Below, one piece after another: positions 25,271-48,488 of a stretch of 64,000 nt of DNA. This DNA is from Strongyloides papillosus (taxonomy: Eukaryota > Nematoda > Chromadorea > Rhabditida > Strongyloididae). Under the pieces are notes generated by a model. The model saw only the letters and a list, made by a program, of their open reading frames with translations. It was not told where the DNA came from and made no database searches. The DNA is taken from assembly GCA_005656395.1 (NCBI GenBank), contig SRSI01000050.1:1736001-1800000 (forward strand). The letters are read 5' to 3'. Positions within the stretch are counted from its first letter, which is position 1, and each line of letters opens with the position of its first letter. Both the position numbers and the translations under genes were made by a program.

Positions 25271-28200
25271 TTATTTGCATTTGTCTCCACATTTATCAGG
25301 ATTGACAAAAGAAATAGCATTCTTATGTCCATTATGATCATTAACAACCTTCGTATAAATATTAACTTTTTCTTCAGGATCATTCTTCTTCAAACACCTA
25401 CAAATATTCCCAAATAGCGTAACAAGAAGATCAACAATTAATATTCCAATCTCCATTATTGTTATAACACTACACCCCAGAAACAGTCCTAATTGACCTC
25501 CAAAGTCAGAGATAAGATTTGGTAGCTAAAACATACATCATTATTATATTATAAATTCTAATATTATACGATATTTTATTGGAGTACATGATTGTATAAA
25601 TTTTTTTTCTCCCAATTCTAATCTAAATGTAGATTGGTTTTTGTATTTATTATTGAGATATCATATAATTTTATAATCATTGTTTAGTATTTTTAATCAT
25701 TTTTAATGCATAATAAAAAGTTGTTAATTATCAAATGTATATGTTTTATTATTCAATGGAATAATTATGGAGTGGATTGTGGAATCGGTTTTAGGGAATT
25801 GTTTTTTTAGATGTTGGTATTGGGAGATGGTGTTTTTTAGAGGGAGTGTTAATTTTTGTTTAAATTTTTATTTTTGGTTCCAATTTTTTTATATATACTA
25901 TAATGCTATTGTAGTTTATAGGAGTACTGTTTTATATACAAAAAAGTGCCAAAAAAACCGTTCTCGGAAAAAAAAGTGCACGTTCTCAAGAACGCCATGA
26001 TAGCTCAGTTGGGAGGGTAGCACGTCAATCTTACAATGCGTTTTTTGCCAAAAATCACACAGTGATTTTTTACCATATTTCGTGTCAGGATTATGGTTAT
26101 AAAATATAAGATTAATGTAAATTTCTTCTATTATAAACAAAGAAAACATGTAATTTTTAATATTTTTCTGATGACTTAATGTATTACTTATATTATTGTT
26201 GTTTTATTGGTAAATTAAATTCATATTGTAACATTTGGAATATAAAAAAAATTTTATGTTATGTTGGTAATCTATGTATTCATTAATAATTAAGAAGTAA
26301 GTAAATTTTTGTTAATTATTAAGCAAATTGTTAATAAAATTCAATTGCTAAACATAATTACTTTAGATTTTACAAATCTGAAGTATAGATTTTTACTATG
26401 TCATGAATAACGTTAGCAAAATTATTTTAAACTAGAAAATATGGTATTAATTTAAAATAAAAACAATTTTTTACTTTGTAAGGTGATTATTATTCAATTT
26501 AAACATTACAACAAAATTAATCTAAATTTTTACTATTCTGAAAATATAAGATTTTTACTGCATCATAAATAATGTTAACAAAAGTAATGTCATAAATCTA
26601 AAAGATATTTTTTGATATTTTGCAAGATAGTTATTAATAAAATATAAATATCAAGTATATTTACTTTAGATTTTACCAATTTGAAGTACGGATTTTTTAC
26701 TACATCGTAATAATGATAACAAAATTATTATCCTTGTGAAATATATACTTTTTAAGACTGAAACACCAATTTTAAGGTTATAAAATTCTAAGAGCGATTT
26801 CTTTGTTAATATATGTACTGAATATGTTTGTACATTGGAAAAATAGAATACTCATATTAAATAAAAATATGTAACACTAATACAATTATTATTGTTAAAT
26901 ACAATTTGTGTTTAAAAAATTTTCCTTATACCAAATATGATCAAAATAAAGTATATTTTCATAAGTTATACAATTTATCACTTTATATTTTATTGAAAAA
27001 ATGTATATATTAATCATTATTAAATCATTTTCATTTTATTTAAAGTGACATAAAAATTATAAGTGAATGAAATGAAATAGGTGTGGGGTAGGTACTTTTA
27101 CTATGTCGTTGGTTTATAAAACCCAGTTTCGGTTTTAGTTACTGAGGCTGGGGCAATTTGGTATTTTGTATAATGGTAGTATATATTATGTATGTATATT
27201 ACTATTATATAAAATCCTAGATTGCATTTTTTGTCAAAAATCACACAATCGTCTAGATTGCGTTTTTTGGCAAAAATTTTTGAAAGATTGACGTGTACCC
27301 AGTTGGGAGAGCGTTAGACTGAAGATCTAAATGTCGCCGGTTCGATCCCGGCTCGTGGCATCTTTTTTTATTCATTATAAACATTTTCAATGTTTTGAAA
27401 AAGATAACAACTTACAGCATAAGCTTCACTTTCCTCCAAAGCTTCATAATTTAACTGCTCATAAAATACTTCAATCATAGCGCCTTGTTCTCTATAAAAA
27501 TTCAAACATTCCTGTGGTGTCAAACCTTCTTCACAGGATCTTTTAAAATTAGTACCAGATGGCCATCTACTTGAGGAGTATGTTACACTATATATTAACG
27601 ATAAACATGGCTGTTTACAATTACAACTTTCTTTAGATACAGACTTTTTTATTTCTCTCGTCAAACATTCTCCTTTAAAATGAATTATTATATAACGTTA
27701 GAAGTTACGTAAACATACTTGAAGAAAGATCATTAATATTACAATTAGAATTATTCATATATTGCGGAAATCTCGGATCACCACAACCACATGCTTTAAC
27801 TAAACTTTTCTGTAAACATGTCCTTATACAACCTTCTGTTGAATACTCTTTATCTTTATAAATAAAATCATCGTGTTTCTCCCCTTCATAACAGTCACCA
27901 TATGGAGCCGGGAGTCTTTTTACTTTTTTCTATAAAAGTATTAAAAGATATAAATTTTATTTAATTAAAATGTTTATCATGATACTTTTACTCTTATCAT
28001 AGTAAAAACATGTGTTATTAAAATTGGTAATAGATATTTACTTACGAGTTTAATGCCGAATGATGAAAGAAATCCAGTTGGTGCACTATACCCCTCCGTA
28101 TCGGGAAATGGTTGTTGTTCGGGGTTATGTACTGTTAATCTTATTCCGGCAGCCTCTGTTGTTGGGAGGTAATCCGACAGATTAACAAAAGCCTCAAACC

Positions 28201-30507
28201 GTAGACCATTAATATTACCAGCTTTGTCAATGTTTTGTCTTTCAGACTTATTGTAATTAAATGTAAAGCAATTTCCATATGTTGGGTCGACAAATATTAC
28301 GAAGTCGCTATAAAAAAATTACGTGTATAAAAATTAAGAATTTAATTTTGAGAAAAGAAACTGCTATAACTTACTTTTCAACAGAACATTGTCTTCCATT
28401 AAATGAGCACTTTTTAATGAATTCAGTGTGTGTATATCCTAAGGATAGCTTTTCAGTCTCTGAAAGATTACTAACAGCAAATATAAGATTTTCAGCAGAT
28501 TTAGCACGTATTGCAACGGGATCTGTAAACTCCTTCAACCCAAATGCCTTCTCTTTCTCAATCTCCTTCTCAATAACCTCTGGTGAAAATGTGGTTGTCC
28601 TGGCTATCTGCCAATACTTCGGTATCGAATCATCACCAATTAACTGATCCAAGTATTCCTCCTCCTCAGAGAGATCCAATGAATGATTACTCACAGACAT
28701 TATAGCCCCAGTCAAATTTGATGCAATTTTTTTAACATTATTAATATTCTTAGATGGTGCTGGTATCTCTACACAAAATCTTATAACATCGGCACATTTA
28801 CATGCAATTCTCCCTCTAGTAAAGGTTGAATTAGCATATTGACAACCACCATTTCCAAAACACCCAATACATTTCCTATCCCTCCAAACTTCCGGTTTAT
28901 AACATGGCCAGACAATGCCGTTTTTTTGATTATAAGCACATAAACATAATTCATTGTACTCCTCTATATTTGTATTTTCTTTTTGCCCTTCACATGAAAT
29001 GGATCCTTCACATTTACATCTAGCATAAATAACTAAGACATCCTTTCCAGGAGATAAATCTGGAGTTTGCTTATTTTTATGGTCTTTATTCCTGGGAATT
29101 CTTTTAGGTTGTTTATTAATAATTTCATTATTAATTCTTATAACATTATCTTTATAATTATCTAAATTGGTAGCTTGAATACCAAAACATTTTCCATCAT
29201 CATCACATAAACATTTATCTTGTGTCTGGAGTGCCCAACTTTTATGACATATATTATTCCAGTTACAATCTTTACATTTATGAATATACCATTCCTTTCT
29301 CTCTTTACAATAATAATTATCATTATTTTGTGGAGCAAAACATAAACAATCATTATCATTACTTTTTGAGGTAATTTGACAACTAGAGGAGGAGGTACTA
29401 TCTAAATTACATGAACATTTTCCTTCCCTTACTTTTAAAGGCCATTTCGGTGTGTAAGCATCAAAATTTAATAAAAAACACTCTTCATTGGTTGTTGAGA
29501 TGGAATTACAAATGCATGGAAAAGTGGAGTTGACAAAGTTTGATGGTGTTACATTTGTCAACATCCCGATAACCGTTGAATTGAGGGAGGATCGTAGACA
29601 GAATGAGGAATCTGATGGAGAACAATATTGACAGGTTGTCATGGCCCACTCTTCTGTTGGTGTACAGGCCCAGGGTGATTTTAATGGCCCCGTAATTATG
29701 CAGTAACAATATTCTTTACTCTCCGCAATTGGTACATAAATTTCCTCCAAAGATTTTGCACAAGGAGATTTGACAACTTTTGTCCATTCGAGTTTCTTTC
29801 TAGGTACCTCTCGACGTGACCTCTCTGATTTTTCATCTTTTTCTGTTGATGATATTGCAGTATCAAAAGCGTTTAACTGTTAATAGTAGTAAAAAAAATG
29901 AGATTAGAAAAATTAAACTAGATAATAATAACTTTTTTTTAAAATGAACTATTATTTATGTGTTTTGTTAAAAATAAAGACTAGAAAAAAATCTTTTTTA
30001 CCAACCATCATTTGTTTGTACTTTATGTCATACATTAAATATCAACATATATCTCTTGATACTTCAATAAGTACAAAATACTATTTTTATACACATCATT
30101 TTTTAGAAATTTCATTAATATATATTTATGACTTACTGTATCTTTTAAAGCACCCATAGTTCTGGCTAATGAATTTTTGTATGGATTTAAGTTACAAACA
30201 GTAACACTAGGAAATTCAAGTTTCTCAAATTTCAACTCAACAGAAACTATTTTATCGTTACGTAAAAATTTTGCCACCAAATAATATGCCTGACCAAAAA
30301 ATGCTCCAACGCATATTAGGAATAGGAGAAGCCACAGAGAACGGCGAAGGCCCTTGTTATTATAAGCTCTTGGTATCCCATGGGCACTGAAAAAATATGA
30401 AAAAAAGTTTAGATTAAAATGAAAGATAATGGATAGTTCTTTTTTTAGTAAACATACCTAGTGTTACTGGCGAAATCACTGAGATTAAGAATGATACTCC
30501 TATACAT
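25271..30507 (-). CDS. DEG/ENaC (degenerin) cation channel with large Cys-rich ectodomain
   Basis: Seven exons (minus strand) with matching phases: 30458-30507, 30137-30386, 28375-29876, 28046-28307, 27719-27929, 27416-27672 and 25271-25525. They encode about 928 residues, long for the family. The N-terminus carries the conserved His-Gly motif (SAHGIPRAYNN), then TM1 at about 35-55. The 1.5-kb third exon holds a Cys-rich region with three similar modules (about 157-233, 277-330 and 411-468; pattern CxC, W, CxxC, CxC). The canonical ectodomain follows: TYGNCFTFN, GIRLTVHNPEQQPFPDT, APTGF, RLPAPYGDC and CLTREI. The last exon has the pre-TM2/TM2 segment DFGGQLGLFLGCSVIT; GCS fits the G-x-S selectivity filter. 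These channels conduct Na+ in mechanosensation or ligand gating. The last intron (25526-27415, 1.9 kb) contains an interrupted tRNA gene on the opposite strand. Confidence 0.92.
26007..26015 (+). repeat. Target-site duplication, left copy in tRNA-Phe
   Basis: AGTTGGGAG at 26007-26015 is repeated exactly at 27301-27309, immediately outside the two element ends. It corresponds to tRNA nucleotides 14-22 (D loop and A-box). Confidence 0.9.
26037..26061 (+). repeat. Subterminal direct repeats of the element
   Basis: A 25-bp motif at 26037-26061 (consensus core TTTTTTGYCAAAAATCACAC) recurs in the same orientation near the right end at 27223-27247. A shorter third version sits at 27259-27279. The same motifs are present in copy 2. 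Subterminal repeats of this kind often bind transposase; here that is inference. Confidence 0.7.
26358..26730 (+). repeat. Three degenerate internal tandem units in the element
   Basis: Three related blocks begin near 26358, 26517 and 26661. Each runs CTTTAGATTTTAC-like, then a Gly-Ala-Ala-Gly-type GAAGTA segment, then GATTTTTACT, then CATMATAATG, and ends AACAAAATTATT or similar. Spacing is about 145-160 bp. They are diverged from each other but identical between the two element copies (47238-47610 in copy 2). Confidence 0.6.
27301..27309 (+). repeat. Target-site duplication, right copy in tRNA-Phe
   Basis: Second exact copy of AGTTGGGAG, directly after the element's right end and directly before the remaining tRNA sequence AGCGTTAGACTGAAGATC. 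Confidence 0.9.
27363..27369 (+). terminator. Pol III terminator of tRNA-Phe
   Basis: A run of seven T residues begins two bases after the tRNA discriminator base, as expected for a Pol III terminator. Confidence 0.8.
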
Positions 30508-31360
30508 AATAATATTTATCCTAAAAAATACTCTTATCACATATATTATCATAAGAAATATGAGGAAAAGCAAAATAATATTAAGTAGTAATTGTATAAC
30601 AGTTTTGGAAAAGGATAATGAAAGTTAATGAAAGTACAAATTTTCAGTTATTCTCAAACTCCCTAAACTATAAAGTGGAAACAGATATCTTTATGATTAA
30701 TAAATTCATAACAAATAACTATGTCTGCCCTCATTGTAAGTTAATGACATTTAAATTTCAATCACTCTTTAAGTAACTTTTAAATAATCTATGCGGATAT
30801 CAAAAAAAATATTATATTTTAAATGTTTCTTGAAAAAATGTTATATACTTTTAAATAATTACAAAATAACAGTAATAAATGTTAAGTATTATATGGATAT
30901 ATATATTTTTATGATATATAATATTGCAATTTTAAAAATACAAACTTCTCTAAGATAATATTTCTATTTTTAACATTTATCTCATTTTCTAGTATAAAGG
31001 CGTTCCATATATTATATTTTTTATATAAATCACCTAAAAAAAAGTTAGTAAGATATGGATAAAGGTTTTTTTTGGTTACAAAAGTTATGGAAGCGAAATT
31101 AATTTGAACTTAGGAAGGAAAGCATAAAATATTGATGATGATATAAAATCCCTATAGTATTGTAAAATCATGAAAAAGTAATCTTGGTTTAGAACTTTAA
31201 TATATTAGTTTTTGAAAGACGTCATAATAGATTAAATTTCAATCTTTAAAGTAATACCTTAATAGAAATTTAGATTTATTTATTTATTTGTTTACCAGTT
31301 AAAAAACAACAACCATAACAAATTAAATATTTAACAGTATAATAATTTTTTCATTTTTTC
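30508..31360. other. Degenerin upstream region / CDKAL1 3' spacer
   Basis: A+T-rich spacer between two minus-strand genes. It should contain the 3' UTR of the CDKAL1 gene and the promoter of the degenerin gene. Nothing else seen. Confidence 0.5.
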
Positions 31361-33106
31361 TCAAAACAATAACGTTAAAAACTTCAGTAGTATTGAAATA
31401 AATATAACAATAAATGAGTATAATGTTATTTTTTGTATTAAATTCTTGCTATTATCACTTTCCTTCTTTATAATAACTTTCTCTTTCACGTCCTCACCCT
31501 CACCAATTATTTTACTTTTCATATGAAATTTAGATACTCCTGTAATCTCTACTTCCACCCACTTTCCTAAAAGGCCATCTTTATATGGGACAAGAATGTG
31601 TTCGTAAGTTTTATTATGTCCAACAAGGTGAGACTTATCTGTGGCAACCTCACATACAAGAACTTTCTCAACTCCACCTATTCTGCTTTCATCATAACGT
31701 GAGTATGTGTTGAATAAATCAGTCATAAGTCCTGTCCTCCTCCTTGCTTCTTGGGTTGGGATTTTCTTCAATCTTGCTGCTGGTGTTCCAGATCGTGGGT
31801 AAAATTGATTAATATATAAACTTGGGAATTTATACTTTCTTACAAGTTCTAATGACTCTTCAAAATCATCTACTGTCTCTGTTGGGAATGCACAAATAAA
31901 GTCTGTTGCTATATATATCTCTGGTACACTATAAAAAAAATTAAATTTTAAAGATGAACTTTTGTTTTCCAGTTTTTTTAATTATAATAAATTGTTTTTT
32001 GGTGTTAAAAAGTATATTAGTAGTAGTTTAAAAATAAGTGTATTTTAAGAATATTAAAACTTACTGATCTTTCATATAGTCAACAATTTGACAGAAATGT
32101 TCCCTAGTGTATTCTCGTTTCATTTCCCCTAACACACTATCGGAACCAGCTTGAACAGGAATATGGAGGAATGAATAAACTCGAGGATGATTCAATATCT
32201 CTGCTATCTCCTCAAGGTGATCCAATATATATGGTGGATTTGTCATGCCAAGTCTCATCATGCAATCTTCAGGAATAACTTTAACAAGTTCCTTCAACAA
32301 ATCAGGTAATACAAGACCGATATCTCTGCCATAAGCTCCTAAATCTTCACTTGTTAACCATAATTCTTTACAACCATCAACTTCAAAGGCGTTTTTGGCT
32401 GTCTGTACCAACTCCTCCAAGGGGTAAGAAACTAAATCACCACGAGCAAGTTTAGTTTTACAATATGTACAATTATTAAGACATCCAGAATTTATAGCTA
32501 AAATTTCGATAAGCTCATTTTTCCTTATTTTCGGTGCTGATAATTGAACATCTTTTCTTTTTTGTGATAACAACCTAACTGTGTTTCCTTTTATTGTCTC
32601 CTCGACAACATTAACGACTTGATCAATTTGTTTTACACCAATAATAGAAATATCCTTTAAATATGGTTCATTTGGTGCAGCCTAAAAATAACAATTTGAA
32701 AAAAACAATATATTTTTCTGTAATTTAATATCATTACCTGTGAGACACACCCAGCAACAACAACATTTTTTCCTTTCCCTTTTGCTTCCTCGATTTGATT
32801 CATAAAAGTTGTCTCTGATGGTGTTTTAACAGTACAACTATTAAGAAGCCAAACATCGGCATCTTCCTTGTTTTTGACGACTGGAAAACCAGCCTTAGAT
32901 AGGAGACCACTCATATATTCGGAATCCGAGTTATTATGAGAACATCCCCAAGTCCTAACATAAACAGACTTCGTCCACGGAACGACACTATCTAATTTCC
33001 CAATTTCCTCTTTGTTTTTAATGTTTTTTGTCCTAACTTTCACCTGAATCTCATCATTTACCTTTTTATTAGAATTTACAATATCAAGGCAATCTTCAAT
33101 ATCCAT
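31361..33106 (-). CDS. cdkal-1: CDKAL1, tRNA ms2t6A methylthiotransferase
   Basis: Three exons on the minus strand, 32738-33106, 32065-32681 and 31361-31928, encode about 517 residues. The N-terminal methylthiotransferase domain has its three cluster-binding cysteines in [11 protein letters not shown] (C55), LLNSCTVKT (C91) and VAGCVSQ (C120). The radical-SAM CxxxCxxC motif is [10 protein letters not shown] (about 190-197). Later segments [33 protein letters not shown] and a TRAM region ([19 protein letters not shown]) match CDKAL1. A C-terminal hydrophobic helix would anchor it to the ER, as in animal CDKAL1. The family adds a methylthio group to t6A at position 37 of tRNA-Lys(UUU), using SAM and two 4Fe-4S clusters. 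Confidence 0.95.
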
Positions 33107-35684
33107 AATTTAGGAATATTATATTAAGAGAAATGTATAAAGCTATTTTCTAATATTTTATTATTTAAAATTGCTAATATACGCTATTATCAGAATTTCT
33201 CTCTAAGACAATTACAATTGATAAAAGTACTTCCCCATAGATGTAGGAATAAAATTTGTCTCATCTTCAAAAGATTATTACCAGTAACTTGTAATTATTA
33301 ATAACAGTGGAGAGTGTACAAAAACAACCAGGAGAGGAGATGTATCATAAAGGATGTAAGAAGTAATTTGGTAAATAAAAAAAAACAAAAAAAATCTTAC
33401 ATCATCACCCCATCAATATGTAATCACATCTATATACTAATATACATAATGACATTTCTAAAAATTTTTGTTTCGACGTGCAAGTGTAAAAATATATTAT
33501 ATATTTGTCTCTCTTCAGCGATCTTATTTCATTTCTCAAACATCTATATAATTCTTAAAAATATTATATCTTTTTGTAGGAGTAAAAAATTACCAAAATA
33601 AAAATTATTAAAATATTTATTTATTATTATAGTGGAAAATCATCTGTGTAAGTGATGGTGGGGGAGAGAGAGACAGGGGAGTGGGGAGAGAGAAGGAATA
33701 GAGAAAATAAGAAGTTAAGAAACAGGAGCAGACAAAATATCTCCTGTTGATTTTTCATTTTCAAAAACATTATTATAAAAAAAATATTTTTAATTCTGAC
33801 GACAGATTTTGAAAATTCTTTAAAATGTTTTGTATCTTTTATTTAAATTTAAATATTAAAATATTTTTAATATTTCAAATGATGTTTTCATACATATTTA
33901 TTCTATCTCTTAAACACTTAGATTGTTTTTTGTCTTTATAGAATAATATTAATATGTTAAGAGATCTTGTTTAATGATTTAACAACAATTTTCCCATTTT
34001 TATAACTTTATTGTGTATGTGTAAATATATCATTATAATAAAAAATAGTTAGCTGGCGTGATCGAAAAAGAAATCCTTTTAGTTGATAAAAGTTTTTAAA
34101 CAAAAGGTAGGTCTTTAAATATAGTGAAAAAAGAATGTATCATCAAATTTTTATTTATAAATTTCTAAGTCTATCTATTACAGTTCAAAACTTCTACTGT
34201 CCTTGTTTTAATCTCTTTCTTCATCCTTTTTATGGCTTCATCTTTATTTATGTCGATTTATGAAGTGTTGTATATACTTATTAGTTGATAAATTATCTAT
34301 ATTATTGGTGATTATTATTATATATGGATATGTATATATACAAGTGTACACTTTATACGTTTAACTAAATCTGATTATGCATGTATATTTGTATATCTAT
34401 TATTTATTTTTTATTAAATTTTTTTATGTGAAATACTTTTATACTTGATGTCTATATAATATCACTTTAATGAAATTGTTAGCGTTATGTCCTTCTATAT
34501 CTCAAACTTTTCGACCAACGTGTTCAGTTTTTTTTTTCATTTTACCCCACTTTGTTCATTACTTTAACTTTAATCAAAATGTTTATATTTTCATTTAATA
34601 TATCATCAATTATAAAATTAACGTTTTTTATTTCTCTTACATAACCATTACGTATTAATTAGTATAAACTTTTTAACATTATTAAAACAGTTTACAATGA
34701 GGAATGGAATGTGAGCATAAAATAAAGTAATAAATAACTTTATTTTTTCTACTAAAATATTCCATAAGAAATATTCTTCTCTTTTAAAAGTGTATTTTCT
34801 CATTGATAGGAAAGACTTCCTCCATCGTTAAATATTTTTAAAAGTTTGCTTTTCAAATTTTCTTCTAAGATAACGTACAAAATGCGAATAGAATAAGTAA
34901 AAATACTAGTGTTATATATATATTTAGCAGCCGTTGTATAATCCTGCTTTAGAATGACATACACTTCTATAAAAAAAATAAGTTTTTTCATTCTAAAATA
35001 AAAGTGCCATGGTTATGAAAGGATAAAGCGCATATATACATATACTTTTGCCTACGTGCCAATTGATAAGATAAATAAATTTTAACTAACATACTTATAT
35101 TTTAAAATAATTTTTTTTTAAAACTTTTATAGATTTTTTTCTTTTATTCTTAACTTAGAATATTTTAGCTTCTTCTATTTAATAAATAGTAAAAAAGTAA
35201 AAGTTTCAAAATATATTGACTGGAACTACATTCTACTTTATTTTTTATTTGTCTGTTACTATAGCCACATTCTTTATATTGTGGACATGTATATTGTTTG
35301 TTCAAATCTGAGCAAATTTTTAATGACTTAAAGTTTACATTTTATTTTTTTCCCTATCTTATCATACTAATTTCTTAACTATCTTACACATATTTTATAC
35401 TATTACTACACCAATAATATGTTTAATATATGATTTTTTGTTCATTTTCAGATACATTGATTGCTTCGTAAACCTACGGCAGCAATCGAAAAAAACTATT
35501 AATCACTAACAACAAATTACTATAACTTATTATACACCAACCACACCAGAAGAATCAAGGAAGTGAAAATTTTTCCAAGAAAAAATTATACTCCATCCAA
35601 TTGTGTTGTTAATTTTTTCCACGAGAACAAAATAAATTAGGAAGAATAATTAATTTATACCAAAAAAAAGTTCACTACTAACAA
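33107..35684. other. Divergent upstream region, CDKAL1 / hexokinase
   Basis: 2.6 kb of mostly A+T-rich DNA upstream of two divergent genes. A 3' splice-like site (TTCATTTTCAG ending at 35451) may begin the transcribed hexokinase leader. A long purine tract is listed separately. No other gene is supported; open frames at 33.3 and 34.8 kb are low complexity. Confidence 0.5.
33651..33731 (+). repeat. GA-rich purine tract
   Basis: About 80 bp that are nearly all purine on the plus strand, with GGGGGAGAGAGAGACAGGGG-like composition, followed by AGAAGG and AAGAAGTTAAG. It stands out sharply from the surrounding DNA. It could bind GAGA-type factors or form unusual helices; no function is shown. Confidence 0.6.
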
Positions 35685-38030: not shown

Positions 38031-38284
38031 GAACATAGAATATAGTTAATTTGTATATTTTAAACCAAATTTTTATACGAAGGAAAGAGAAAAAAGATTT
38101 TTATTAAGTAGATGAAATTATTATAAAAAGCATAAATAGCTTTACTATGTTATTGTATGATTTTCTTTAAGAAATTCTTTTTTTGTTCTTATTATTATAT
38201 TATAAAATTATTTGCCTTAAAAAAGTAAAATGTTTGAAAATATTATAGTTTACTAATACTTACATTTTCAATAAAAACTTTTTT

Positions 38285-39479
38285 TTAAACTTTCAATGAT
38301 TGACTACTTTTTTTGGAATTGTTCTCAGATTCCCTAAAAACGCTTAATGTACTGAATTTACGTATCTCGTCAATCCATGGCATCAACCAATACTCAGGAG
38401 GACAAAATGCATTCCATTGCTCCACCGTGACATGTTTACCATTTCTTAAAGCAGATCTAAGAAAACCAAGAGCATCAAAACTCCTACCAAACGAATGCAA
38501 ATTCTGTATACAAGCAGAACCAACTAAATCAACTGTTAAAGTTGATAAAATAAGACCAACAAATATAAAAGCAATCCATCCATAATAATTTTCACCATTT
38601 GTCTCAATATTTAAATCACCATAACCAATGGTAACTAGAGTAATAAGGGTAAAATAAAAGGAATCTAGGAAATTCCATTCTTGAACGTGGGTAAAGACAT
38701 AAGCAGCCACAGCCATATAACCAAGAAGGAGGAGAAGAACAAAGATTTGGGCTGCTGCACTTGTTTCAATGGTAGCAGCCAAACTGTCGACGTCATCATC
38801 GTTCTCGATTAAACCATCCTTTTTAAAGTCTTTTCTCCTTACATTTCTCCAGTAACAATGGTTTATTAGGTCGGATAAGAATTTTGCTACATCAGCTATT
38901 GTTATCAATGTTAATGGGATTCCAAGGAATGAGTAGAAGATACAGAAAAACCTTCCGAAAAAGGATATTGGAACTAGATTACCATAACCAATTGTTGTGA
39001 CAACAGTTACAGCAAAAAAGACAGCCGTTGAGAATGTCCATTTGTTAGTTAGATTAGTTTCAATATTAAAATCTTCTATTGTTATACCTTCATCAAATGC
39101 CTGCATAGAAACATAAATAAGTTGGTCTATCAATTCTTCAGCACTCTCATTACCATACTTATGAATATCAAAATACTTTATTCTTTCCTAAAACATGATA
39201 TTTTTATAGTACAAAAAAAATTAAGACAAAAAAGAAAAGTAAACATACTTGTACTTCTCTAATATTATCAAGATGAAACTTCCTATGTTCCAATTCATAG
39301 GGAGCCTCAATAAGATAAAACAATTCAGCACCAATACATATATACACCAAAGTTGCAGTACACAACAAAACATGAGGTAAAATTAACCTAACCTTCTGAA
39401 TAAACCTTGAAGACATTTGTGGTTGTGTAAAAGATGAAAAGAATGATTTGTGCCATTTTTCATGCCTCCCACTTAACAT
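38285..39479 (-). CDS. Two-pore-domain (TWK/K2P) potassium channel
   Basis: Two exons (39249-39479 and 38285-39187), phase 0, encode about 377 residues. The first transmembrane helix is near 37-53 (VLLCTATLVYICIGAELFYL). Pore 1 carries TTIGYGNLVP (GYG at 144-146) and pore 2 VTIGYGDLN (GYG at 265-267). The helix between them contains FYSFLGIPLTLI, typical of K2P channels. A trans-splice-like acceptor (TCTTTAG) lies 15 nt before the ATG. K2P dimers carry background K+ leak current at the plasma membrane. The exact TWK member cannot be named from the sequence alone. Confidence 0.93.
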
Positions 39480-40458
39480 ATTCCTTTTTTTTCTAAAGAG
39501 AATATAATTATTATTTAATTGTCAGGAGTGTATATATTATTAAAAATTCAATGAATAGATTTAGGTGATAAACATAAAAATAAACCCCATACAAATATAA
39601 TTGGGAAAAGATTTTTCCTATAAATTATTAATAATAATAGTAAACATATACATATATTTATTTTAATAATATAAAATATTATATTTTTACCTATAAATAG
39701 GTTTAACCTTTTTAAATATTTTATATATACATTATCAATTGGTTAACCATAAGCCTTTTAACTGTGTATGTTTATTATACCCTAAAATTGACAAACTCTT
39801 ATAAACTTTTACCATATATATCCTTTAATTTTCATTTAAATGATAATTGATAAGAAATGAACCATACAAGTTGTATTTTTAGAAAGACACTATATCAACA
39901 ATATATCTTGTGGTTGTTATGAAAAAAAGGAGAAAAAAAAGAGAAATCTGGTATGTTATTGGCCCCTCCTGTCATCTTCTTTTTCATTCTAATATATTAT
40001 ATACTTTTTAATAGTTAAAAATTGCCAAAACTGATACACATTTTTGGGTGTAGTAAATGAAATTGATAAGATACCCAGAGGAGTTAAAAAAATTTGAAGT
40101 TAGTTAAAAGTATTTCTGGTGACAATTTTTGATTTAATAGTTTCTTTTAATAGATGCATTAAATGTTGTCTTTCAATTGGGAAATGAGAAAAGTCAAAAA
40201 AACTAGAAAAGTTGCTTTGTTCTAATTCGAGAGTAAGATGGTGTTGAAGCTTCTTTACAGAGCGTTTATGACTTTAATTTGTAGTATTGATGTTACCCTT
40301 GTAATCTAAAATAATGACAAAAGACGTTTATCAAAACAAAAAACCAATTTAACTAATATACTTCCTAGTTTTTATTACAACACATACTGTAATTTAGTCT
40401 CATCCATAACATAAAAATAAATTAAGTATAAATTTATTAGAAAAGGGTCAAAAATTAT
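39480..40458. other. Spacer upstream of the K2P gene
   Basis: A+T-rich spacer between two minus-strand genes; should contain the ORC5 3' UTR and K2P promoter. No other feature recognised. Confidence 0.5.
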
Positions 40459-41871
40459 TTACAAAGACGCAAAATCGTAAAGATAATCATTCAAAGTTAT
40501 ATCTATAGAATCTGCAATCTCCTCAACAAACTCCTTACTTAACATTGACCGGTATTTAGGAAATTCGAAATTAGTTTGTTTCATTGACCTTCCAAGCATA
40601 CCCATATTACATAGATTTCCGAGAACATCCAATGTCCCAACGTACAAAGGGTTAATAGCATTTTGTTTGGAGAGTAAGTATGAAAAAATCATTTTAAATC
40701 TGTCGAGAGGAAAATTTTTTGGACCCAGTTCGTGGAGAGAATTCTTGGGATCTCTTTTAACTTCGTGCATCGTCTTCCGCTGTTTTATGTGTTGTTTTAC
40801 AAAAAATCTTTTATCGGAGGATGGAGGGTTGAAGGAAGCACAATATGATGCAACTATTGCATATTTGGCTATAGTTGGTAGGTAGATTGTTTTTTTTGTC
40901 TTTTTATTACCACGTTTACCCTATAATTATGGAATGAAAATTATAGTTTAAAAAAGAAAGGCATACCATATAATAGTAGGATAAAATATCTGACATCAAT
41001 TGATTTACCTCAGCGAGGTTTTTAGCACTTTTTCCCGATATCTGAATGTTATCATCAATAATTTTGTCTAAACATTTTCTACTCAAAAATAGTAAATTAT
41101 TATAATCTGCACAATATGTATAGGTAACTCCTAGAAACAACTCAACAAATTTTTCCAGTTCATCTTTTTTAAAATGTTTACCATGGTCTTCTTCGAGTGT
41201 GTTAAATAGATTCTGCGCCATTTCAGCTGAAAGAAATATTTTAATAATAGGGGTAAAAAAGTAAAATAAACTCTTACCTCTATCTAGGGGAGTTAAACCA
41301 ATTTCCATGGCAAATGAGTTGAAACCCAACCTCGTGGAAATATTATGCCAAGGAAACTTTGAAACGGTAATAAATTTAAACAAAATACGAGTATGAAATG
41401 GAGTGTCGAAAAAAGTTTTAAGAAAAGAGGAACTAAATTCCGTCAGGTACTCAGCGTTCCTTAAGAGAATAACAATAATTTTACCGGTATGATCAGTGAC
41501 AAATTTTTTTGAATTTACAAAATCAATAAAATCACTTATGTTCTTAAGTTTTCCACCTTCAATTTCTTTAGAAAACATTGTTTCAAAGAGAAATTGTACT
41601 GATCCATCAACCATTATTAAGTTTATATCTTTTACAACCTATAAAAATAATGAATATATTTTGTTTAGGAACTTACATATTGAGTATCATCAAAAAAATC
41701 CTCACTATGCCCATTGAAATCCATAATGTATTCTAAAATATCTTCTTCCTTTGGTGAGACAGCTCCGGAGATGTGTAAATGATTAAGTACCTGAGATGTT
41801 TGGAGCAAAAAACTCGCAACATCCTCATGATCCTTTGATATAATCCTACTCCTACCATTTCTTCGTCCCAT
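40459..41871 (-). CDS. orc-5: Origin recognition complex subunit 5, with lost ATPase motifs
   Basis: Four exons: 41677-41871, 41278-41638, 40967-41226 and 40459-40920 (minus strand). They encode about 425 residues, matching ORC5 (about 435). Intron 2 (51 bp) is open in frame but has strong GTAAGAG and TTTCTTTCAG ends, so it is treated as an intron. The C-terminal winged-helix region is diagnostic: YLPTIAKYAIVASYCASFNP, SDKRFFVKQH and GPKNFPLDRF. The Walker A position reads GAVSPKEE (about 36-43) instead of Gly-x4-Gly-Lys-Thr, and the Walker B Asp position is Arg in VILLRNAEYL (about 123), so ATP binding looks lost. ORC loads MCM helicase at origins in the nucleus. The first ATG is used because the frame upstream has only a TTG. 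Confidence 0.9.
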
Positions 41872-42139
41872 ATTTTTAATTATCAAACAAAAATAGTAAC
41901 TAATTCAATGTCAATTTTCAACACAAAAAATGTTCACTTCTTCAATACGAAAAACATACAAAAAAATTCCCGGTATAAATAACAAAACATTTTACCAAGG
42001 AATATCTCTTAAAATGAATAAAACACTGTCAATGGACAACATTTCCTTTGCTGTCCACCGCACTTTTATCACCTATTACAAATAATATTAACACAAAAAA
42101 TTATAATTATCATTTATTTTTGTAGATTGAAAGAGAAAA
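41872..42139. promoter_or_regulatory. Divergent promoter of orc-5 and listerin
   Basis: Only 268 bp separate the two start codons, so the region must serve both genes. It contains an inverted repeat TGGACA (42033-42038) and TGTCCA (42052-42057) with a 13-nt spacer. A TTTTTGTAG acceptor-like site lies 15 nt before the listerin ATG. Confidence 0.6.
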
Positions 42140-45100
42140 ATGAAAAAAGGAACTGGTGGAGGTAAAATTAAGGTTAGGAAACATTTATGACTAATGAAAA
42201 TGATATTTAATTTTATAGACGGCTTCGAGTTTACGGGCAGCTGAAAATTTAATTTCAAAAGGTTTTAGTGGTGGATTTATTGGTTTTAATGCTGTTAGTG
42301 GGGGTAATGTTGATGTTCCGGTGGAGGAGGGTGAATTGATAATAGAGAATTTGGGGGATGAGTATTCTCATGAGTTGAAGGTGTTGTTGAAGAAGATTGA
42401 GAAGAAGGATAAGTTAACGAAGGAGAAGGGTATAAAAGAGGTGAAGGAGATTGTTATGAAGAATGATGTTAAGGAGAATAAAATTATTTATGATGCTTAT
42501 GCTTTGATGTTCCCAAAACTTTCTGGACATGCTTCGCCTACTATTAGGTCTTTGTCGGTTGATCTTTTGAAGATTCTTATATCGTCGTTAAAAAAGGATG
42601 CTTCTAAAAAGTTGAAATTAGTCATGCCTTATGTTTTATTTTTGACAAGTGACATGTCAAGTCAAGTTAAACGTCAAAGTGATTCATTAATAGAAGTATG
42701 CTTTCCAGGGAAGAGAAATCAAATATTTGTCACATTCAAAGAACAATTAGACGACTTGTGTATGGAAGTAATTAGTAAAAACCACAAATTAATGAAACCC
42801 CAAAAATTCGTTGAGGACGAAACCGATAAACAAAGAGAAAGCAGATTAATTGCCCAAAGTCTCGGGACCCTCCTAAAATTAATTGACACATCAAACGACC
42901 CTGAATACAACAAAAAACTAAGTGAAAAATTCTCCAACCCCGTAATAATAAATCACCTAACCTCATTGGGAAGCATTGTCAAAGCAACATACTTAGAACT
43001 AATCCTAAAACTATCAAAAGACAACGAAGACACATTCCTCGTAACAAAACTTCCATCAATTATATTGTCAAATCTGGATAATGATGACATCCCCCTCTGT
43101 AAGGCGGCATTTAGTTGTTTCCTGAAATTTGCCCAAAATGATAAATATTTTGAGAGAGTCGACATTAACAAAGCAATTATCCCAAAGATAATAAAAATTG
43201 TTAGGAGATGTTATATTAAATGGAGTTTTATCTCTGATAATTTGTTACCAGTTTTTGATATAATTTGTAGGAGGAATAAAGAGAAGAAGCAGTATTTTAC
43301 TGAATCCGTTCTTGATGGCCTCCTGGAAAGGGAGATAGAAAAGAAGACGGCTGACTCGTTTGTTCAATCAATAAATGAGATATATAAATATTCTATGTTT
43401 ACTTGTGGAGGTGATATGGATATGGTGGATTATTTGTTAGAGTATTTTAAGAAGTTATTAAATTATTGTTTTGAGGTTGATGATTGTGTTGTGACGAAGT
43501 GTGTGTTGGATTTAGGGATTTGGATATTTAAGAAAGGGAAAGATAAACAAATTATGGGGGATGATAAATTTGATATGCTAGTTGACTATATCGTTAAAGG
43601 TTTAGTTGAAAAGTTTCCAAAATTTGAGGATTTTGCAGTTAAATTTTATGAAGGGAGTGGGTGTGAGAAGTTTAAAAAAGAGCTGTTGAAGTCTCCACAA
43701 ATTTCAACTGAATTATATTTATCATTAACGGAAAAGAAATCAGGTGATAATCAAAATGTATCACTAGAACCATTATTTAAAAGATTTGAGGAGACGGAAG
43801 ATCAAACAATTAAAGTACAAATTCTTCAAAAATCTCTCAATGAAAGTGGCAAAGAGGAGTTGTGTGAATATTTTGAGAAACACCTTAATCTCGATGATCC
43901 ATTTACATGTCTAGCTGTGATACAAGCGATAGACGATAATAATATAAACAAAATAAATATAACAACAGTAAGAAATTGTATATTAGTTATATATAATGCT
44001 GTTGGAGCCAAACAAATATCAGGTCTTGTTTATGAATCTCTAAAACATTTGTATAAGTATTTTGATGATAATGTGTATGAGAGTGCCTTCACGTCATTAG
44101 TGAAAGTACCATCACCTGATGTGTATTTAGCTTTGCTAGATTTGCTTGCTGATGGGAATTATCATCCAGATATTGGGGAGAATTTGATTTGTTTTTTGTT
44201 TAAAATTTTAACGAAAATTAAGAAGACTGTTTCACAGGAATGTGGGGAGAAATTGAGAATAATTTACGATAAGTATAATGATGGATCATTTGATATTGAG
44301 GAGATTAATGAGATATATGAAAAGTTCTTGAGAGATAGAAAGACTTCACGCATACTAGAATTCTCTGAAAATGCAATTATTGTTAGCAATTGTAAGTTCA
44401 TGCCATTCTTGATTTGGGATGAGAAGTTTGAGGAGTATTCAGAATTTTTGTCAATGAACTTTTATTCATTGTTGTATGATGAGGTAAAAGAAATTGATTA
44501 TCAAGGATGTGTTGTTGATGATGATATAGAAGAAGTTATTATGTTGCTTTTAAAGAAATGCTTAGTAATTTCAAAAATTATTGAGAACAGTATGGGATAT
44601 GATGAAGAGAGTGGAAAAAAATCAACTTTATTCGTATTGGCTTTCAATAGAGTACTTCAATTGATTAAACAAAACAGTTATATGGATGATCCTGATATGG
44701 ATTATGTTTTTGATATTAAAAAATTTAGTTCAGATGAGTTGTTATTAATTTTACCTAGTAAATATAAGAACTTCCCTTGCTATTATCAATTACTTACCAA
44801 GAAAGAAGAGACAGAAGTCAAGGTTCCAACATCAAAAGAAATTAGAGGATTAATTGAGAGTGGTGAATTGAAAGATAAAATATATCTTGATGATGACTGG
44901 GAAGAATGGTTATTCTTATATACAGATGATGAAAAGAAATTAAAATCATTTAACTACATTTTAGAAATTTTCCTTCAAGATGCAAATATATTCAATATAA
45001 CCTCTCTCGAGAATGCCGATGATTTCAGGGTATGTGGGTTGGTTACTCTATTCAGTTATGCTGCAGAGAATATTGATAACTTATTATCTGATAAAAATAC

Positions 45101-46550
45101 AATACCACTACAATTATATAGAATCGCCATAAAACTAGGTTGTGATATAATTACAAAAAGAGAAAAAGCAGCAAAAGAAATTAGAGGTTACCATACAGTA
45201 GCAGAAAACTATGAAATCAAAGAATGGGTATTCGTTATCCAATCAGTTTTTCCAAATATTCTCAAAATCTTCCTTGACCTTAACAATATGTCCCCATCAT
45301 TTTACCTCTCAAATATTCATTTAATTAACAGTATATCCAAATGTATTATAACATTAATTGATCAAGTTAAGACTGATGAGATTGTTCAGGAGCCAAATAT
45401 GACGATAGAAGAATCAACTAAGAAGTATATTTATATTTTCACAGAGTTGATGCAAAATAAACTTTCAGCTCATGTTCAAATTGTTGCTGCTTCCCTCTTC
45501 CACTCAGTTTTACCGTTGTATTTCTACTATGAGAATAAAAAGTTAGTTGATGAAACTAAGAAGGAGTGTGAAAATATTACATCAGAAAAGTGTGTTCCTA
45601 TCTTACCTCCAGTCATAACGGCTTTATTGAAGAAAGTCAATTTAGAGGAATTGAAAGTAGAAAATGAAACTAATGGTCCTCCAACAACGTATATACCTTT
45701 TGAATTGTTACTATGGAATAGTTTGATTTACTTCTTCAAGACCCTCGAAGATGATGAGAAACTATTGTATATGGAAGCATTAGACAACGAATTAGTATCA
45801 ATTGGTCTAGGTATAGCAATGTTCTACCTCCCAGATGTACCATTTAGTCGTGAAAAATCAAGTAAAAAACATTTTAAAGAACTTCCTAAGTTTAGAAATT
45901 CCCCCGATGATCCATATTTTACCCTATCAAACTATGCTTGTTATGTTTTCTTCCAAACATTGAAAACAATCCCTGTCTTCATTAGGCAATGGTTAAATTT
46001 ACTACCAAATTCAACTAAAGCTCATATAAAAGAATATATTGTTAAATATTTCTCACCCTCCATTATTGAGGATGAACTTAATAACTCATCAACATGGAAA
46101 GAAAAATCTGGTTCAAGATTGTCAATCAAAGTCTACAAAGTCATCAAGACAATTGAGGCATATTACGAAATCGAACATGGTTCGGGTATGAATCTTCGTG
46201 TCATCCTCCAAGATGACTATCCTTTATCACTACCAGTTGTTGAAACTGACAAGTCTGTTGTTGCTAAGAAAATTAATAATAAATGGTTAATGCAAGTATC
46301 AACGTATATTTCACACCAAAATGGTTTGGTTATCTCTGGTCTCCAGCAGTGGAAGAGGAACTTTGATAAACATTTGGAAGGTGTTGAGAATTGTTCAATT
46401 TGTATTATGATAGTCAATTCTGTTAATAATCAACTTCCTCGTGTTAAATGTAAACAGTGTAAACATAAATTCCATGCTCAATGCCTTTATAAGTGGTTTG
46501 ATACTTCTAATAATGCAAGTTGCCCCTTGTGTAGAAGTGAATTTATATAA
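42140..46550 (+). CDS. ltn1: Listerin, RING E3 ubiquitin ligase of ribosome quality control
   Basis: Exon 1, 42140-42172, encodes the start MKKGTGGGKIK. A 46-bp intron leads in phase 0 to exon 2, 42219-46550, for about 1,454 residues. The N-terminus matches listerin (SLRAAENLISK, then GFIGFNA), the part that contacts the 60S-NEMF complex. The long middle is Leu-rich helical repeat (HEAT/ARM-like). The C-terminal RING at about 1403-1451 is CSICIM, CKQCKHKFHAQCLYKWF and CPLC, the listerin-type variant RING. Listerin ubiquitinates nascent chains stuck on split 60S subunits in the cytosol. It shares a short divergent promoter with orc-5. It is somewhat shorter than human LTN1, mainly in the repeat region. 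Confidence 0.94.
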
Positions 46551-46870
46551 GTTTATTGTTAAATTAAAGGATGATGTCATCTTAGAATTTTATTATAAAT
46601 TATTTATTTGTTAATAAAGTTTGTTCTTGAGTTTTTTGTTTTAAAATTTCATGCATTTTATATTGTAATTACATTTTAATAATCCAAAATTAATGAAAAT
46701 TTGATAAAAATACGTTAAAAAAGAGTGGAAAAGAATTATATTCAAATAATTGTTATACTGACATTCGAGATAATGCATTTACTATAATAGGCAAATCAAA
46801 ACTAACCCATTCGTTATAGTGTACTAAACTAAATATCAATCTCAAGATTGACATAGAATGCAGAGCACAC
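46551..46870. other. Listerin 3' flank and SRP RNA upstream region
   Basis: Contains the listerin 3' end (AATAAAG near 46612) and about 200 bp upstream of the SRP RNA gene. No other feature recognised. Confidence 0.5.
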
Positions 46871-46886
46871 GCCGGGAGCTGCGGTG

Positions 46887-46895
46887 GGCTCTTGT
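46887..46895 (+). repeat. Target-site duplication, left copy in SRP RNA gene
   Basis: GGCTCTTGT at 46887-46895 is repeated exactly at 48181-48189 just outside the element. It lies about nucleotides 17-25 of the SRP RNA. Confidence 0.88.
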
Positions 46896-48180
46896 GGTAG
46901 CACGTCAATCTTACAATGCGTTTTTTGCCAAAAATCACACAGTGATTTTTTACCATATTTCGTGTCAGGATTATGGTTATAAAATATAAGATTAATGTAA
47001 ATTTCTTCTATTATAAACAAAGAAAACATGTAATTTTTAATATTTTTCTGATGACTTAATGTATTACTTATATTATTGTTGTTTTATTGGTAAATTAAAT
47101 TCATATTGTAACATTTGGAATATAAAAAAAATTTTATGTTATGTTGGTAATCTATGTATTCATTAATAATTAAGAAGTAAGTAAATTTTTGTTAATTATT
47201 AAGCAAATTGTTAATAAAATTCAATTGCTAAACATAATTACTTTAGATTTTACAAATCTGAAGTATAGATTTTTACTATGTCATGAATAACGTTAGCAAA
47301 ATTATTTTAAACTAGAAAATATGGTATTAATTTAAAATAAAAACAATTTTTTACTTTGTAAGGTGATTATTATTCAATTTAAACATTACAACAAAATTAA
47401 TCTAAATTTTTACTATTCTGAAAATATAAGATTTTTACTGCATCATAAATAATGTTAACAAAAGTAATGTCATAAATCTAAAAGATATTTTTTGATATTT
47501 TGCAAGATAGTTATTAATAAAATATAAATATCAAGTATATTTACTTTAGATTTTACCAATTTGAAGTACGGATTTTTTACTACATCGTAATAATGATAAC
47601 AAAATTATTATCCTTGTGAAATATATACTTTTTAAGACTGAAACACCAATTTTAAGGTTATAAAATTCTAAGAGCGATTTCTTTGTTAATATATGTACTG
47701 AATATGTTTGTACATTGGAAAAATAGAATACTCATATTAAATAAAAATATGTAACACTAATACAATTATTATTGTTAAATACAATTTGTGTTTAAAAAAT
47801 TTTCCTTATACCAAATATGATCAAAATAAAGTATATTTTCATAAGTTATACAATTTATCACTTTATATTTTATTGAAAAAATGTATATATTAATCATTAT
47901 TAAATCATTTTCATTTTATTTAAAGTGACATAAAAATTATAAGTGAATGAAATGAAATAGGTGTGGGGTAGGTACTTTTACTATGTCGTTGGTTTATAAA
48001 ACCCAGTTTCGGTTTTAGTTACTGAGGCTGGGGCAATTTGGTATTTTGTATAATGGTAGTATATATTATGTATGTATATTACTATTATATAAAATCCTAG
48101 ATTGCATTTTTTGTCAAAAATCACACAATCGTCTAGATTGCGTTTTTTGACAAAAATTTTTGAAAGATTGACGTGTACCC
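46896..48180 (+). mobile_element. Non-autonomous terminal-inverted-repeat element, copy 2
   Basis: Same 1,285-bp element as at 26016-27300, in the same orientation relative to the host Pol III gene, with one base difference noticed (A at 48150). It has the same ends (GGTAGCAC at the left, GTGTACCC at the right) but a different 9-bp flanking duplication, which proves an independent insertion and fixes the element boundaries. Confidence 0.92.
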
Positions 48181-48189
48181 GGCTCTTGT
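48181..48189 (+). repeat. Target-site duplication, right copy in SRP RNA gene
   Basis: Second exact copy of GGCTCTTGT, followed directly by the rest of the SRP Alu domain (AAACCAACTTCTAGGTGGC). Confidence 0.88.
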
Positions 48190-48475
48190 AAACCAACTTC
48201 TAGGTGGCTTAGGATGGGGAAGGTCTGCCTGTCGGGTAAACATTTGTCTGCCTGTCGTCGTTGACCGAGTGTCCGTGCCAAGCGTAGCGTCGATAGACCA
48301 TCAGTGGGGGAGCCCGTTGGTGATCGGTCGTAGTCAGTTCACTGGCTTATAAAGAGAGATGGATGGCTCAGGCCCGTGAGGGAGCAGGCAAAAGTCTCCG
48401 CGCTATGACAGTGGCCGGATGGCACACGCGAGGCGTTGGGTTTCAGGTGCCGGCATTATATGGTCTCACTCATTC

Positions 48476-48488
48476 TTTTGCACTTTTT
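48476..48488 (+). terminator. Pol III terminator of SRP RNA
   Basis: T4 at 48476-48479 followed by T5 at 48484-48488, at the point where the GC-rich RNA sequence ends. Confidence 0.65.

What the first reader, a model, noticed from the sequence alone, without database searches (positions are those of the whole stretch)
26016..48180. A near-identical transposon-like element inserted in two different Pol III genes
Two 1,285-bp copies (26016-27300 and 46896-48180) differ at one base that I can see. They have different exact 9-bp flanking duplications and interrupt a tRNA-Phe gene and an SRP RNA gene. Pol III genes are a tiny fraction of this window, so two hits out of two point strongly to target choice. 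Dada transposons are known to target multicopy RNA genes but make 6-7-bp duplications. A 9-bp duplication is more like Mutator-type elements, for which Pol III-gene targeting would be new to me.
Basis: partly seen in the sequence, partly recalled or inferred. Interest (0 to 1): 0.92.

Follow-up and report, generated by a model that had tools for sequence, protein, structure and literature searches.

The report
DNA transposon that invades tRNA genes
In this worm-like genome a small cut-and-paste transposon family inserts almost only inside the genes for tRNAs (and one SRP RNA gene), hitting many different tRNAs at different places, which suggests that it looks for the gene class rather than for one fixed sequence.

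Summary
Two 1,285-bp copies (26016-27300, 46896-48180) differ at one base, have exact 9-bp duplications, and interrupt a tRNA-Phe gene and an SRP RNA gene. I tabulated 62 copies of the family in the window's own 58.2-Mb genome. 41 have a 9-bp duplication (38 exact, 3 with one mismatch). With flanks rejoined, 37 of these 41 are tRNA genes of 16 isotypes and one is the SRP gene; three are unassigned. Sites spread over the 5' two thirds of the tRNA gene (median nucleotide 20); the SRP site lies at nucleotides 17-25. Local sequence preference is weak. This differs from Dada transposons (no terminal inverted repeats, 6-7-bp duplications, mostly one site per family). Best explanation: a non-autonomous DNA transposon whose transposase finds Pol III genes as a class, probably through the transcription machinery (inferred). 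The transposase was not found. Mutator membership is plausible (9-bp duplications; one Mutator-type element sits at a tRNA start here) but unproven. Extra finding: the subfamilies carry an SL RNA gene fragment, in which a site-specific LINE inserts.

The parts
25994..26015 (+). 5' part of the interrupted tRNA-Phe(GAA) gene (ends with the duplication)
   Evidence: ARAGORN on rejoined flanks
26007..26015 (+). left 9-bp duplication AGTTGGGAG (tRNA nt 14-22)
26016..27300 (+). transposon copy a, 1,285 bp, ends GGTAGCACGTCAATC...GATTGACGTGTACCC
27008..27123 (+). SL RNA gene-derived block in copy a (upstream region plus SL exon); 82% identical to the 5' region of a host gene read as an SL RNA gene
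27111..27130 (+). SL-exon-like 20-mer GGTTTATAAAACCCAGTTTC in copy a; splice donor not kept
27301..27309 (+). right 9-bp duplication AGTTGGGAG
27301..27360 (+). 3' part of the tRNA-Phe gene
46871..46895 (+). 5' part of the interrupted SRP RNA gene
   Evidence: by eye; located
46887..46895 (+). left 9-bp duplication GGCTCTTGT (SRP nt 17-25)
46896..48180 (+). transposon copy b, one base different from copy a (48150 A)
47888..48003 (+). SL RNA gene-derived block in copy b (same sequence as in copy a)
47991..48010 (+). SL-exon-like 20-mer in copy b
48181..48189 (+). right 9-bp duplication GGCTCTTGT
48181..48479 (+). rest of the SRP RNA gene (1 of 7 SRP matches in the genome; the other 6 also match the whole model)

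Best explanation
A non-autonomous cut-and-paste DNA transposon family (subfamilies of about 700 to 1,290 bp, ends GGT(A/G)(A/G)CACGT...ACGTG(C/T)ACCC) that is moved by a transposase encoded elsewhere and inserts into the transcribed 5' part of Pol III genes, making 9-bp duplications. Shown: structure, duplications, and target class (tRNA genes of 16 isotypes plus one SRP RNA gene). Inferred: the transposase is guided to Pol III genes as a class, most likely by contact with the Pol III machinery (TFIIIC/TFIIIB/Pol III) or the nucleosome-free transcribed region, with only a weak local sequence preference. Inferred: the transposase is of the Mutator type (MULE). My estimates: targeting of Pol III genes 0.97; guidance by machinery rather than a fixed DNA word 0.55; MULE-type transposase 0.55 (lowered from 0.6 on rechecking, because the duplication around the tRNA-side MULE is exact for 8 bp only).
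For: Flank table: 62 copies, 57 with both flanks; 41 with a 9-bp duplication; 37 of 41 are tRNA genes of 16 isotypes by ARAGORN on rejoined flanks, plus the SRP gene. Position: of the 35 copies mapped, duplication midpoints run from nt 4 to 53, median 20; 1 of 35 lies beyond nt 47 where 13.2 are expected for uniform placement. The SRP hit is at nt 17-25. tRNA-Asp genes are hit at 5 different places in both orientations. Maximum information in any column around the site is 0.36 bit. Recent movement: the window copies differ at 1 of 1,285 bases. MULE hint: 9-bp duplications; a MULE with a C-terminal Ulp1-type domain in L056 sits directly at the start of a tRNA-Asn gene, flanked by CATAGTGA on both sides (8 bp exact, or 9 bp with one mismatch), with an empty counterpart in L061.
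Against: No transposase with matching ends was found: the 62 left-end hits pair with short elements or with copies holding nested inserts, are unlikely to be elements (C4), or were not followed. Some sequence preference exists: summed information 3.3 bits over 25 columns against 1.8 +/- 0.3 in shifted controls from the same genes, strongest at the first base of the duplication. Three of 41 intact-duplication copies (C17b, C8big1, L081) could not be assigned to a Pol III gene. 16 of 57 two-flank copies lack a matching 9-bp duplication; five of these have no tRNA piece by a computed match above threshold (C57, C10d, L078, L082, L085). A second MULE (L049, 9-bp duplication with one mismatch) is not in a tRNA gene. 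Contact with any Pol III factor is not testable here.
Confidence: 0.6

Rival explanations
1. A Dada-like, sequence-recognising transposon: the transposase reads degenerate A-box/D-arm DNA (such as RGYNGGTTAG), and other sites are relaxed hits.
For: Many sites overlap the 3' half of the A box (duplications at nt 13-23); weak but significant column information. Some Dada families also hit more than one tRNA type.
Against: Sites at the tRNA start, anticodon arm and variable region, in both orientations, and in SRP RNA; no column above 0.36 bit. Duplications are 9 bp and terminal inverted repeats are present, unlike Dada.
Confidence: 0.25
2. General preference for open chromatin or gene 5' ends (as maize Mu, recalled), with tRNA genes merely the most open sites.
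For: Pol III genes are nucleosome-poor (established knowledge); insertions favour the 5' part of the gene.
Against: Pol II promoters are open too and far more abundant, yet 38 of 41 intact-duplication copies lie in Pol III genes.
Confidence: 0.08
3. Random insertion followed by selection or by duplication of tRNA genes carrying the element.
For: Two tRNA-Thr copies (C3b, C58) share site and have similar flanks, and two tRNA-Ile copies (C42a, L070) share the site.
Against: The 35 copies mapped include 32 or 33 different gene/position/orientation combinations (counted by hand; two tRNA-Asn sites numbered 13 and 14 may be the same position). Selection would remove tRNA-breaking insertions, not enrich them.
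Confidence: 0.02
4. Recognition of secondary structure (cruciform or R-loop) in structured RNA genes.
For: All assigned targets are structured RNA genes.
Against: Sites crowd in the 5' part and nearly avoid the equally structured T arm.
Confidence: 0.07

Closest known systems
Dada superfamily (Kojima and Jurka 2013, PMC3706591; Kojima 2022, PMC8869645)
   Same: DNA transposons inserted inside tRNA, 5S, U1 or U6 genes, several at the A box; internally deleted derivatives; some families hit more than one tRNA type
   Different: Dada: 6-7-bp duplications, no terminal inverted repeats, each family mainly one gene type at one site by DNA sequence. Here: 9-bp duplications, inverted ends, 16 tRNA isotypes plus SRP at many positions
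Mutator-like elements (MULEs), for example Hop and Mutyl (passages of PMC5014426)
   Same: 9-bp duplications, inverted ends; MULE genes present in this genome and one sits at a tRNA start
   Different: No MULE with these ends found; the listings and passages seen report no MULE targeting of Pol III genes
Pol III-gene-targeting retrotransposons Ty1, Ty3, TRE5, DGLT-A (review PMC5911963, passages)
   Same: Pol III genes as a class are the target; integrase contacts with Pol III or TFIIIB known for Ty1 and Ty3
   Different: Those insert next to the gene, copied through RNA; here a DNA element lies inside the gene

Membership tests
Dada | 6-7-bp target duplications | tested here: not met
   9 bp in 41 of 57 two-flank copies, 38 of them exact
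Dada | no terminal inverted repeats (sub-terminal ones only) | tested here: not met
   left end GGTRRCACGT, right end read inwards GGGTRCACGT, with single-base variants in the older 2.2-kb copies and a few others
Dada | one family, one main target gene and site | tested here: not met
   16 isotypes plus SRP, midpoints nt 4 to 53
Dada | Dada transposase in the autonomous element | not tested
   no autonomous partner found; no Dada protein model was searched for
MULE / Mutator | 8-11-bp, usually 9-bp, duplications (recalled; 9 bp for Hop and Mutyl) | tested here: met
MULE / Mutator | inverted ends beginning with G (recalled) | tested here: met
   short, imperfect (one-base indel) ends; a weak criterion
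MULE / Mutator | MULE transposase (PF10551) in an element with the same ends | tested here: inconclusive
   25 MULE domain matches; 7 loci read, none with these ends; 18 not opened, though no left-end hit or 78 was seen to pair around one
Merlin / IS1595 | 8-9-bp duplications (recalled) and IS1595-type transposase with the same ends | tested here: inconclusive
   11 domain matches; 4 loci read, ends such as GGTACTCTTCC differ
P and hAT superfamilies | 8-bp duplications (recalled) | tested here: not met
   9 bp

The most novel reading that the evidence does not exclude
The first DNA transposon family that recognises Pol III genes as a class through the transcription machinery and inserts inside the gene body, as Ty1 and Ty3 do beside the gene; it belongs to a set of transposon families in one genome (including a MULE at a tRNA start) that use tRNA genes as homes.
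Probability: 0.45. Interest if true: 0.86.

Novelty: new variant of a known kind. Interest (0 to 1): 0.74.

Why it matters
Target-specific DNA transposons known so far (Dada) mostly read a fixed sequence, while class-wide Pol III targeting is known from retrotransposons that land beside the gene. A DNA transposon with inverted ends that lands inside many different tRNA genes and an SRP RNA gene would be a third mode, would show that this safe-haven strategy evolved again, and offers a natural experiment for how a transposase can be tethered to Pol III genes. The element also carries a piece of the SL RNA gene, in which a second, site-specific retrotransposon lands.

Tried and rejected
Longer copies as autonomous partners: C52 (L021) and C22 (L050) are long because the same LINE is nested in them; L073 holds a piece of it and L052 diverged reverse-transcriptase pieces at the same spot; C3 (L029/L030) holds a Gypsy-type and a LINE-type coding stretch; C7 (L019) and C10 (L051) hold inserts without long ORFs; the 2.2-kb C8 copies (L035/L036, near-identical duplicates of each other) show no ORF of 100 aa in L035. 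A repeat with ends GGGTGCACGTATAT (L053-L055) matched the right-end pattern with one mismatch but no tRNA gene was found in those loci and it shares only the end; dropped. C4:1354999 (three mismatches) shows no other sign of an element in 4 kb. Covariation test of the region after the SL exon: 2 of 32 predicted pairs with changes on both sides; inconclusive. Literature: searches (listings; 15 of 17 and 12 of 249 papers listed in 83 and 84) showed no report of this family or of MULE targeting of Pol III genes; only open-access PMC papers are held.

Weak points of the counts: the tRNA library used includes the rejoined sites themselves, so the independent evidence is ARAGORN on rejoined flanks. 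Of the 16 two-flank copies without a matching duplication, 10 have a tRNA piece on at least one side and L083 has one by Rfam; C57 and L078 look like tRNA pieces by eye (L078 has a tRNA match below the gathering score); C10d, L082 and L085 have none. Of the 5 one-flank copies, C5b and C32 have a tRNA piece, C10e looks like one by eye, C17c and C8big2 have none. The 62-copy table and the 62 left-end hits are different sets that happen to have the same size; neither is claimed to be complete. The 100-bp miniature L085 lacks the SL piece.

Full report
OBSERVATION. Ends are GGTAGCACGTCAATC and GATTGACGTGTACCC. The flanking duplications AGTTGGGAG and GGCTCTTGT are exact. The first insertion splits a tRNA-Phe(GAA) gene at nt 14-22. 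The second splits an SRP RNA gene at nt 17-25 (the SRP start was recognised by eye). No frame of 100 aa lies inside either copy.

GENOME-WIDE FLANKS. The window lies in a 58.2-Mb, 79-contig genome, G000, contig C1. DNA and end-pattern searches gave several subfamilies: about 1,285 bp (the window's), about 1,148 bp, about 965 bp, about 715 bp and about 706 bp, an older 2.2-kb form and a 100-bp miniature. The 32-nt left-end pattern with up to 3 mismatches hits 62 places, with 0 in the reversed control. I fetched and tabulated 62 copies. Both flanks were available for 57. 41 of these 57 have a 9-bp duplication (38 exact, 3 with one mismatch). When flanks are rejoined, ARAGORN finds a tRNA gene in 37 of 41, of 16 isotypes: Ala, Arg, Asn, Asp, Cys, Gly, Ile, Lys, Met, Phe, Pro, Ser, Thr, Trp, Tyr, Val. 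One more is the SRP gene. Not assigned: C17b, C8big1, L081. Of the 16 two-flank copies without a matching duplication, 10 have a tRNA piece on at least one side by BLAST (its library includes rejoined sites), one more by Rfam (L083), and five have none by a computed match above threshold (C57, C10d, L078, L082, L085). In L068 and L069 two different tRNA halves meet at one element, and both share the right half seen intact in L064, which looks like recombination between copies. L072 and L074 look as if one side had been deleted (by eye).

TARGET RULE. 35 copies were mapped on tRNA coordinates: midpoints of the duplication run from nt 4 to 53, median 20; 1 of 35 lies beyond nt 47, against 13.2 expected for uniform placement. 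24 have the direction of the tRNA and 11 the opposite (two-sided binomial 0.04). Column information around the site is at most 0.36 bit, summed 3.3 bits over 25 columns against 1.8 +/- 0.3 for windows shifted within the same genes. So there is a weak sequence preference, but no fixed word. Three readings fit less well than class-wide recognition: Dada-like sequence reading, plain openness of chromatin, and structure recognition (see rivals). Even if every one of 3,467 first-look tRNA candidates (of which only 63 were scored) were a gene, tRNA genes would fill about 0.45% of the genome. There are 7 SRP matches, one of them the interrupted gene.

MECHANISM. Shown: a DNA element with inverted ends, 9-bp duplications, no long frame in the short copies, near-identical copies. 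Inferred: a transposase made elsewhere cuts and pastes it; it is brought to the transcribed 5' part of Pol III genes by the Pol III machinery. I put the machinery step at 0.55. The transposase was not found. MULE domains match at 25 places (7 loci read) and IS1595/Merlin domains at 11 (4 loci read). One MULE (L056: 673-aa frame with PF10551 and a Ulp1-type PF02902 domain) has ends GAGGCATACCTACTTCTCCAC / GGGGCGTCCTACTTCTCCAC and lies directly at the start of a tRNA-Asn gene between two copies of CATAGTGA: 8 bp exact (-8 to -1), or 9 bp with one mismatch if the right end is read one base shorter; the empty counterpart is in L061. Related ends lie 6-7 bp upstream of tRNA-Arg, tRNA-Thr and tRNA-Glu genes in L017, L061 and L069 (by eye); a simple motif for them was found upstream of 5 of 27 intact tRNA predictions, in loci that were chosen for other reasons. 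Against a general rule, the MULE in L049 has a 9-bp duplication with one mismatch but is not in a tRNA gene. Another family, about 939 bp with ends GGTGGCAAG, also abuts tRNA starts; its left end resembles one end of the window element (local score 17, 0 of 2,000 plain shuffles as high; the other four end pairs tested gave 0.0015 to 0.04). So tRNA genes are homes for several transposon families in this genome, and a MULE origin of the window family is plausible (0.55, lowered from 0.6 on rechecking the L056 duplication). It is not shown.

THE SL PIECE AND ITS LINE. Representatives of six subfamilies share a block around the 20-mer GGTTTATAAAACCCAGTTTC. Over 80-97 bp the block is 87-91% identical to the window copy in the 965-, 715-, 706-bp and 2.2-kb forms (40 of 99 candidates scored, no 1,148-bp copy among them, and its block is visibly less alike), where the whole right-hand 250-310 bp of the 706- and 715-bp forms is about 72-74% identical. 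The block is 82% identical to the 5' region of a host gene whose exon reads GGTTTATAAAACCCAGTTTGAG followed by GT. I read this as the spliced-leader RNA gene: the 24-mer with the donor occurs in 15 exact copies, 8 of them at about 5.5-kb spacing on contig C24. The Rfam SL1 match is far below threshold (21.4 bits, E 1.2), so the name rests on the exon and the donor. The transposon keeps the first 19-20 nt of that exon (columns 1-20 nearly invariant in 22 aligned copies) but not the donor. A LINE with a 1,343-aa reverse-transcriptase frame (PF00078) is inserted at GGTTTATAAAACC/CAGTTT in copies C52 and C22, as a 3' piece in L073, and in two SL RNA genes on C14; a diverged relative lies at the same spot in L052. 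These are the five strongest places plus L052; the weaker matches on C9 and C10 (75-82%) were not checked. It thus behaves like the spliced-leader-specific NeSL elements of nematodes (passages of PMC4640811); its clade was not tested. The DNA transposon has in effect spread extra landing sites for it.

HOST. No name is given for G000. The SL RNA genes, MATH-BTB-like frames recognised by eye and window G+C of 27% suggest a nematode; this is inference.

KNOWN KINDS. Dada papers: PMC3706591 (abstract and two of four parts of the main section read), PMC8869645 (abstract, section 3.1, discussion read). Dada has 6-7-bp duplications, no terminal inverted repeats and mostly one target per family. Ty1, Ty3, TRE5 and relatives insert beside Pol III genes (passages of PMC5911963). 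The listings of searches show no report of a DNA transposon family of this behaviour; subscription papers and Repbase could not be searched.

VERDICT. A real, recently active-looking, Pol III-gene-targeting DNA transposon family; a new variant of a known kind.

Noticed in passing
window 27008-27123 and 47888-48003; representatives of six subfamilies: The transposon carries a piece of a host gene read as the SL RNA gene (upstream region plus 19-20 nt of the exon); in most subfamilies it is better conserved than the surroundings. Function unknown.
   Followed up: partly
L021, L050, L073 and C14:142383-147106, C14:166286-171009 (L086-L089); diverged relative in L052: A LINE is inserted at one and the same site, GGTTTATAAAACC/CAGTTT, in SL RNA genes and in the SL piece inside this transposon; weaker matches on C9 and C10 were not checked.
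   Followed up: partly
L056 (C10:1627900-1633200): A MULE with a Ulp1-type protease domain sits directly at the start of a tRNA-Asn gene between two copies of CATAGTGA; elements with similar ends lie 6-7 bp upstream of other tRNA genes (L017, L061, L069).
   Followed up: partly
L049 3881-4819; also ends in L026, L032, L033, L070, L071, L090: A second family of about 939 bp (ends GGTGGCAAG, duplication of 8 or 9 bp) abuts tRNA starts and has ends similar to the window family.
   Followed up: partly
L049 4829-5773; L061 1840-1926; L012 right flank: CACT-ended elements (CACTCAAAGTCAA..., CACTCAGAAAGAAAGC...) lie in tRNA genes near nt 8-13 (by eye), a possible third tRNA-targeting group.
   Followed up: no
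L041 194-240, L043 1164-1210: Histone 3' stem-loops (RF00032) lie close to two IS1595/Merlin-type transposase genes.
   Followed up: no
L064, L068, L069: Copies whose two sides come from different tRNA genes while sharing one half, as expected from recombination between copies.
   Followed up: no
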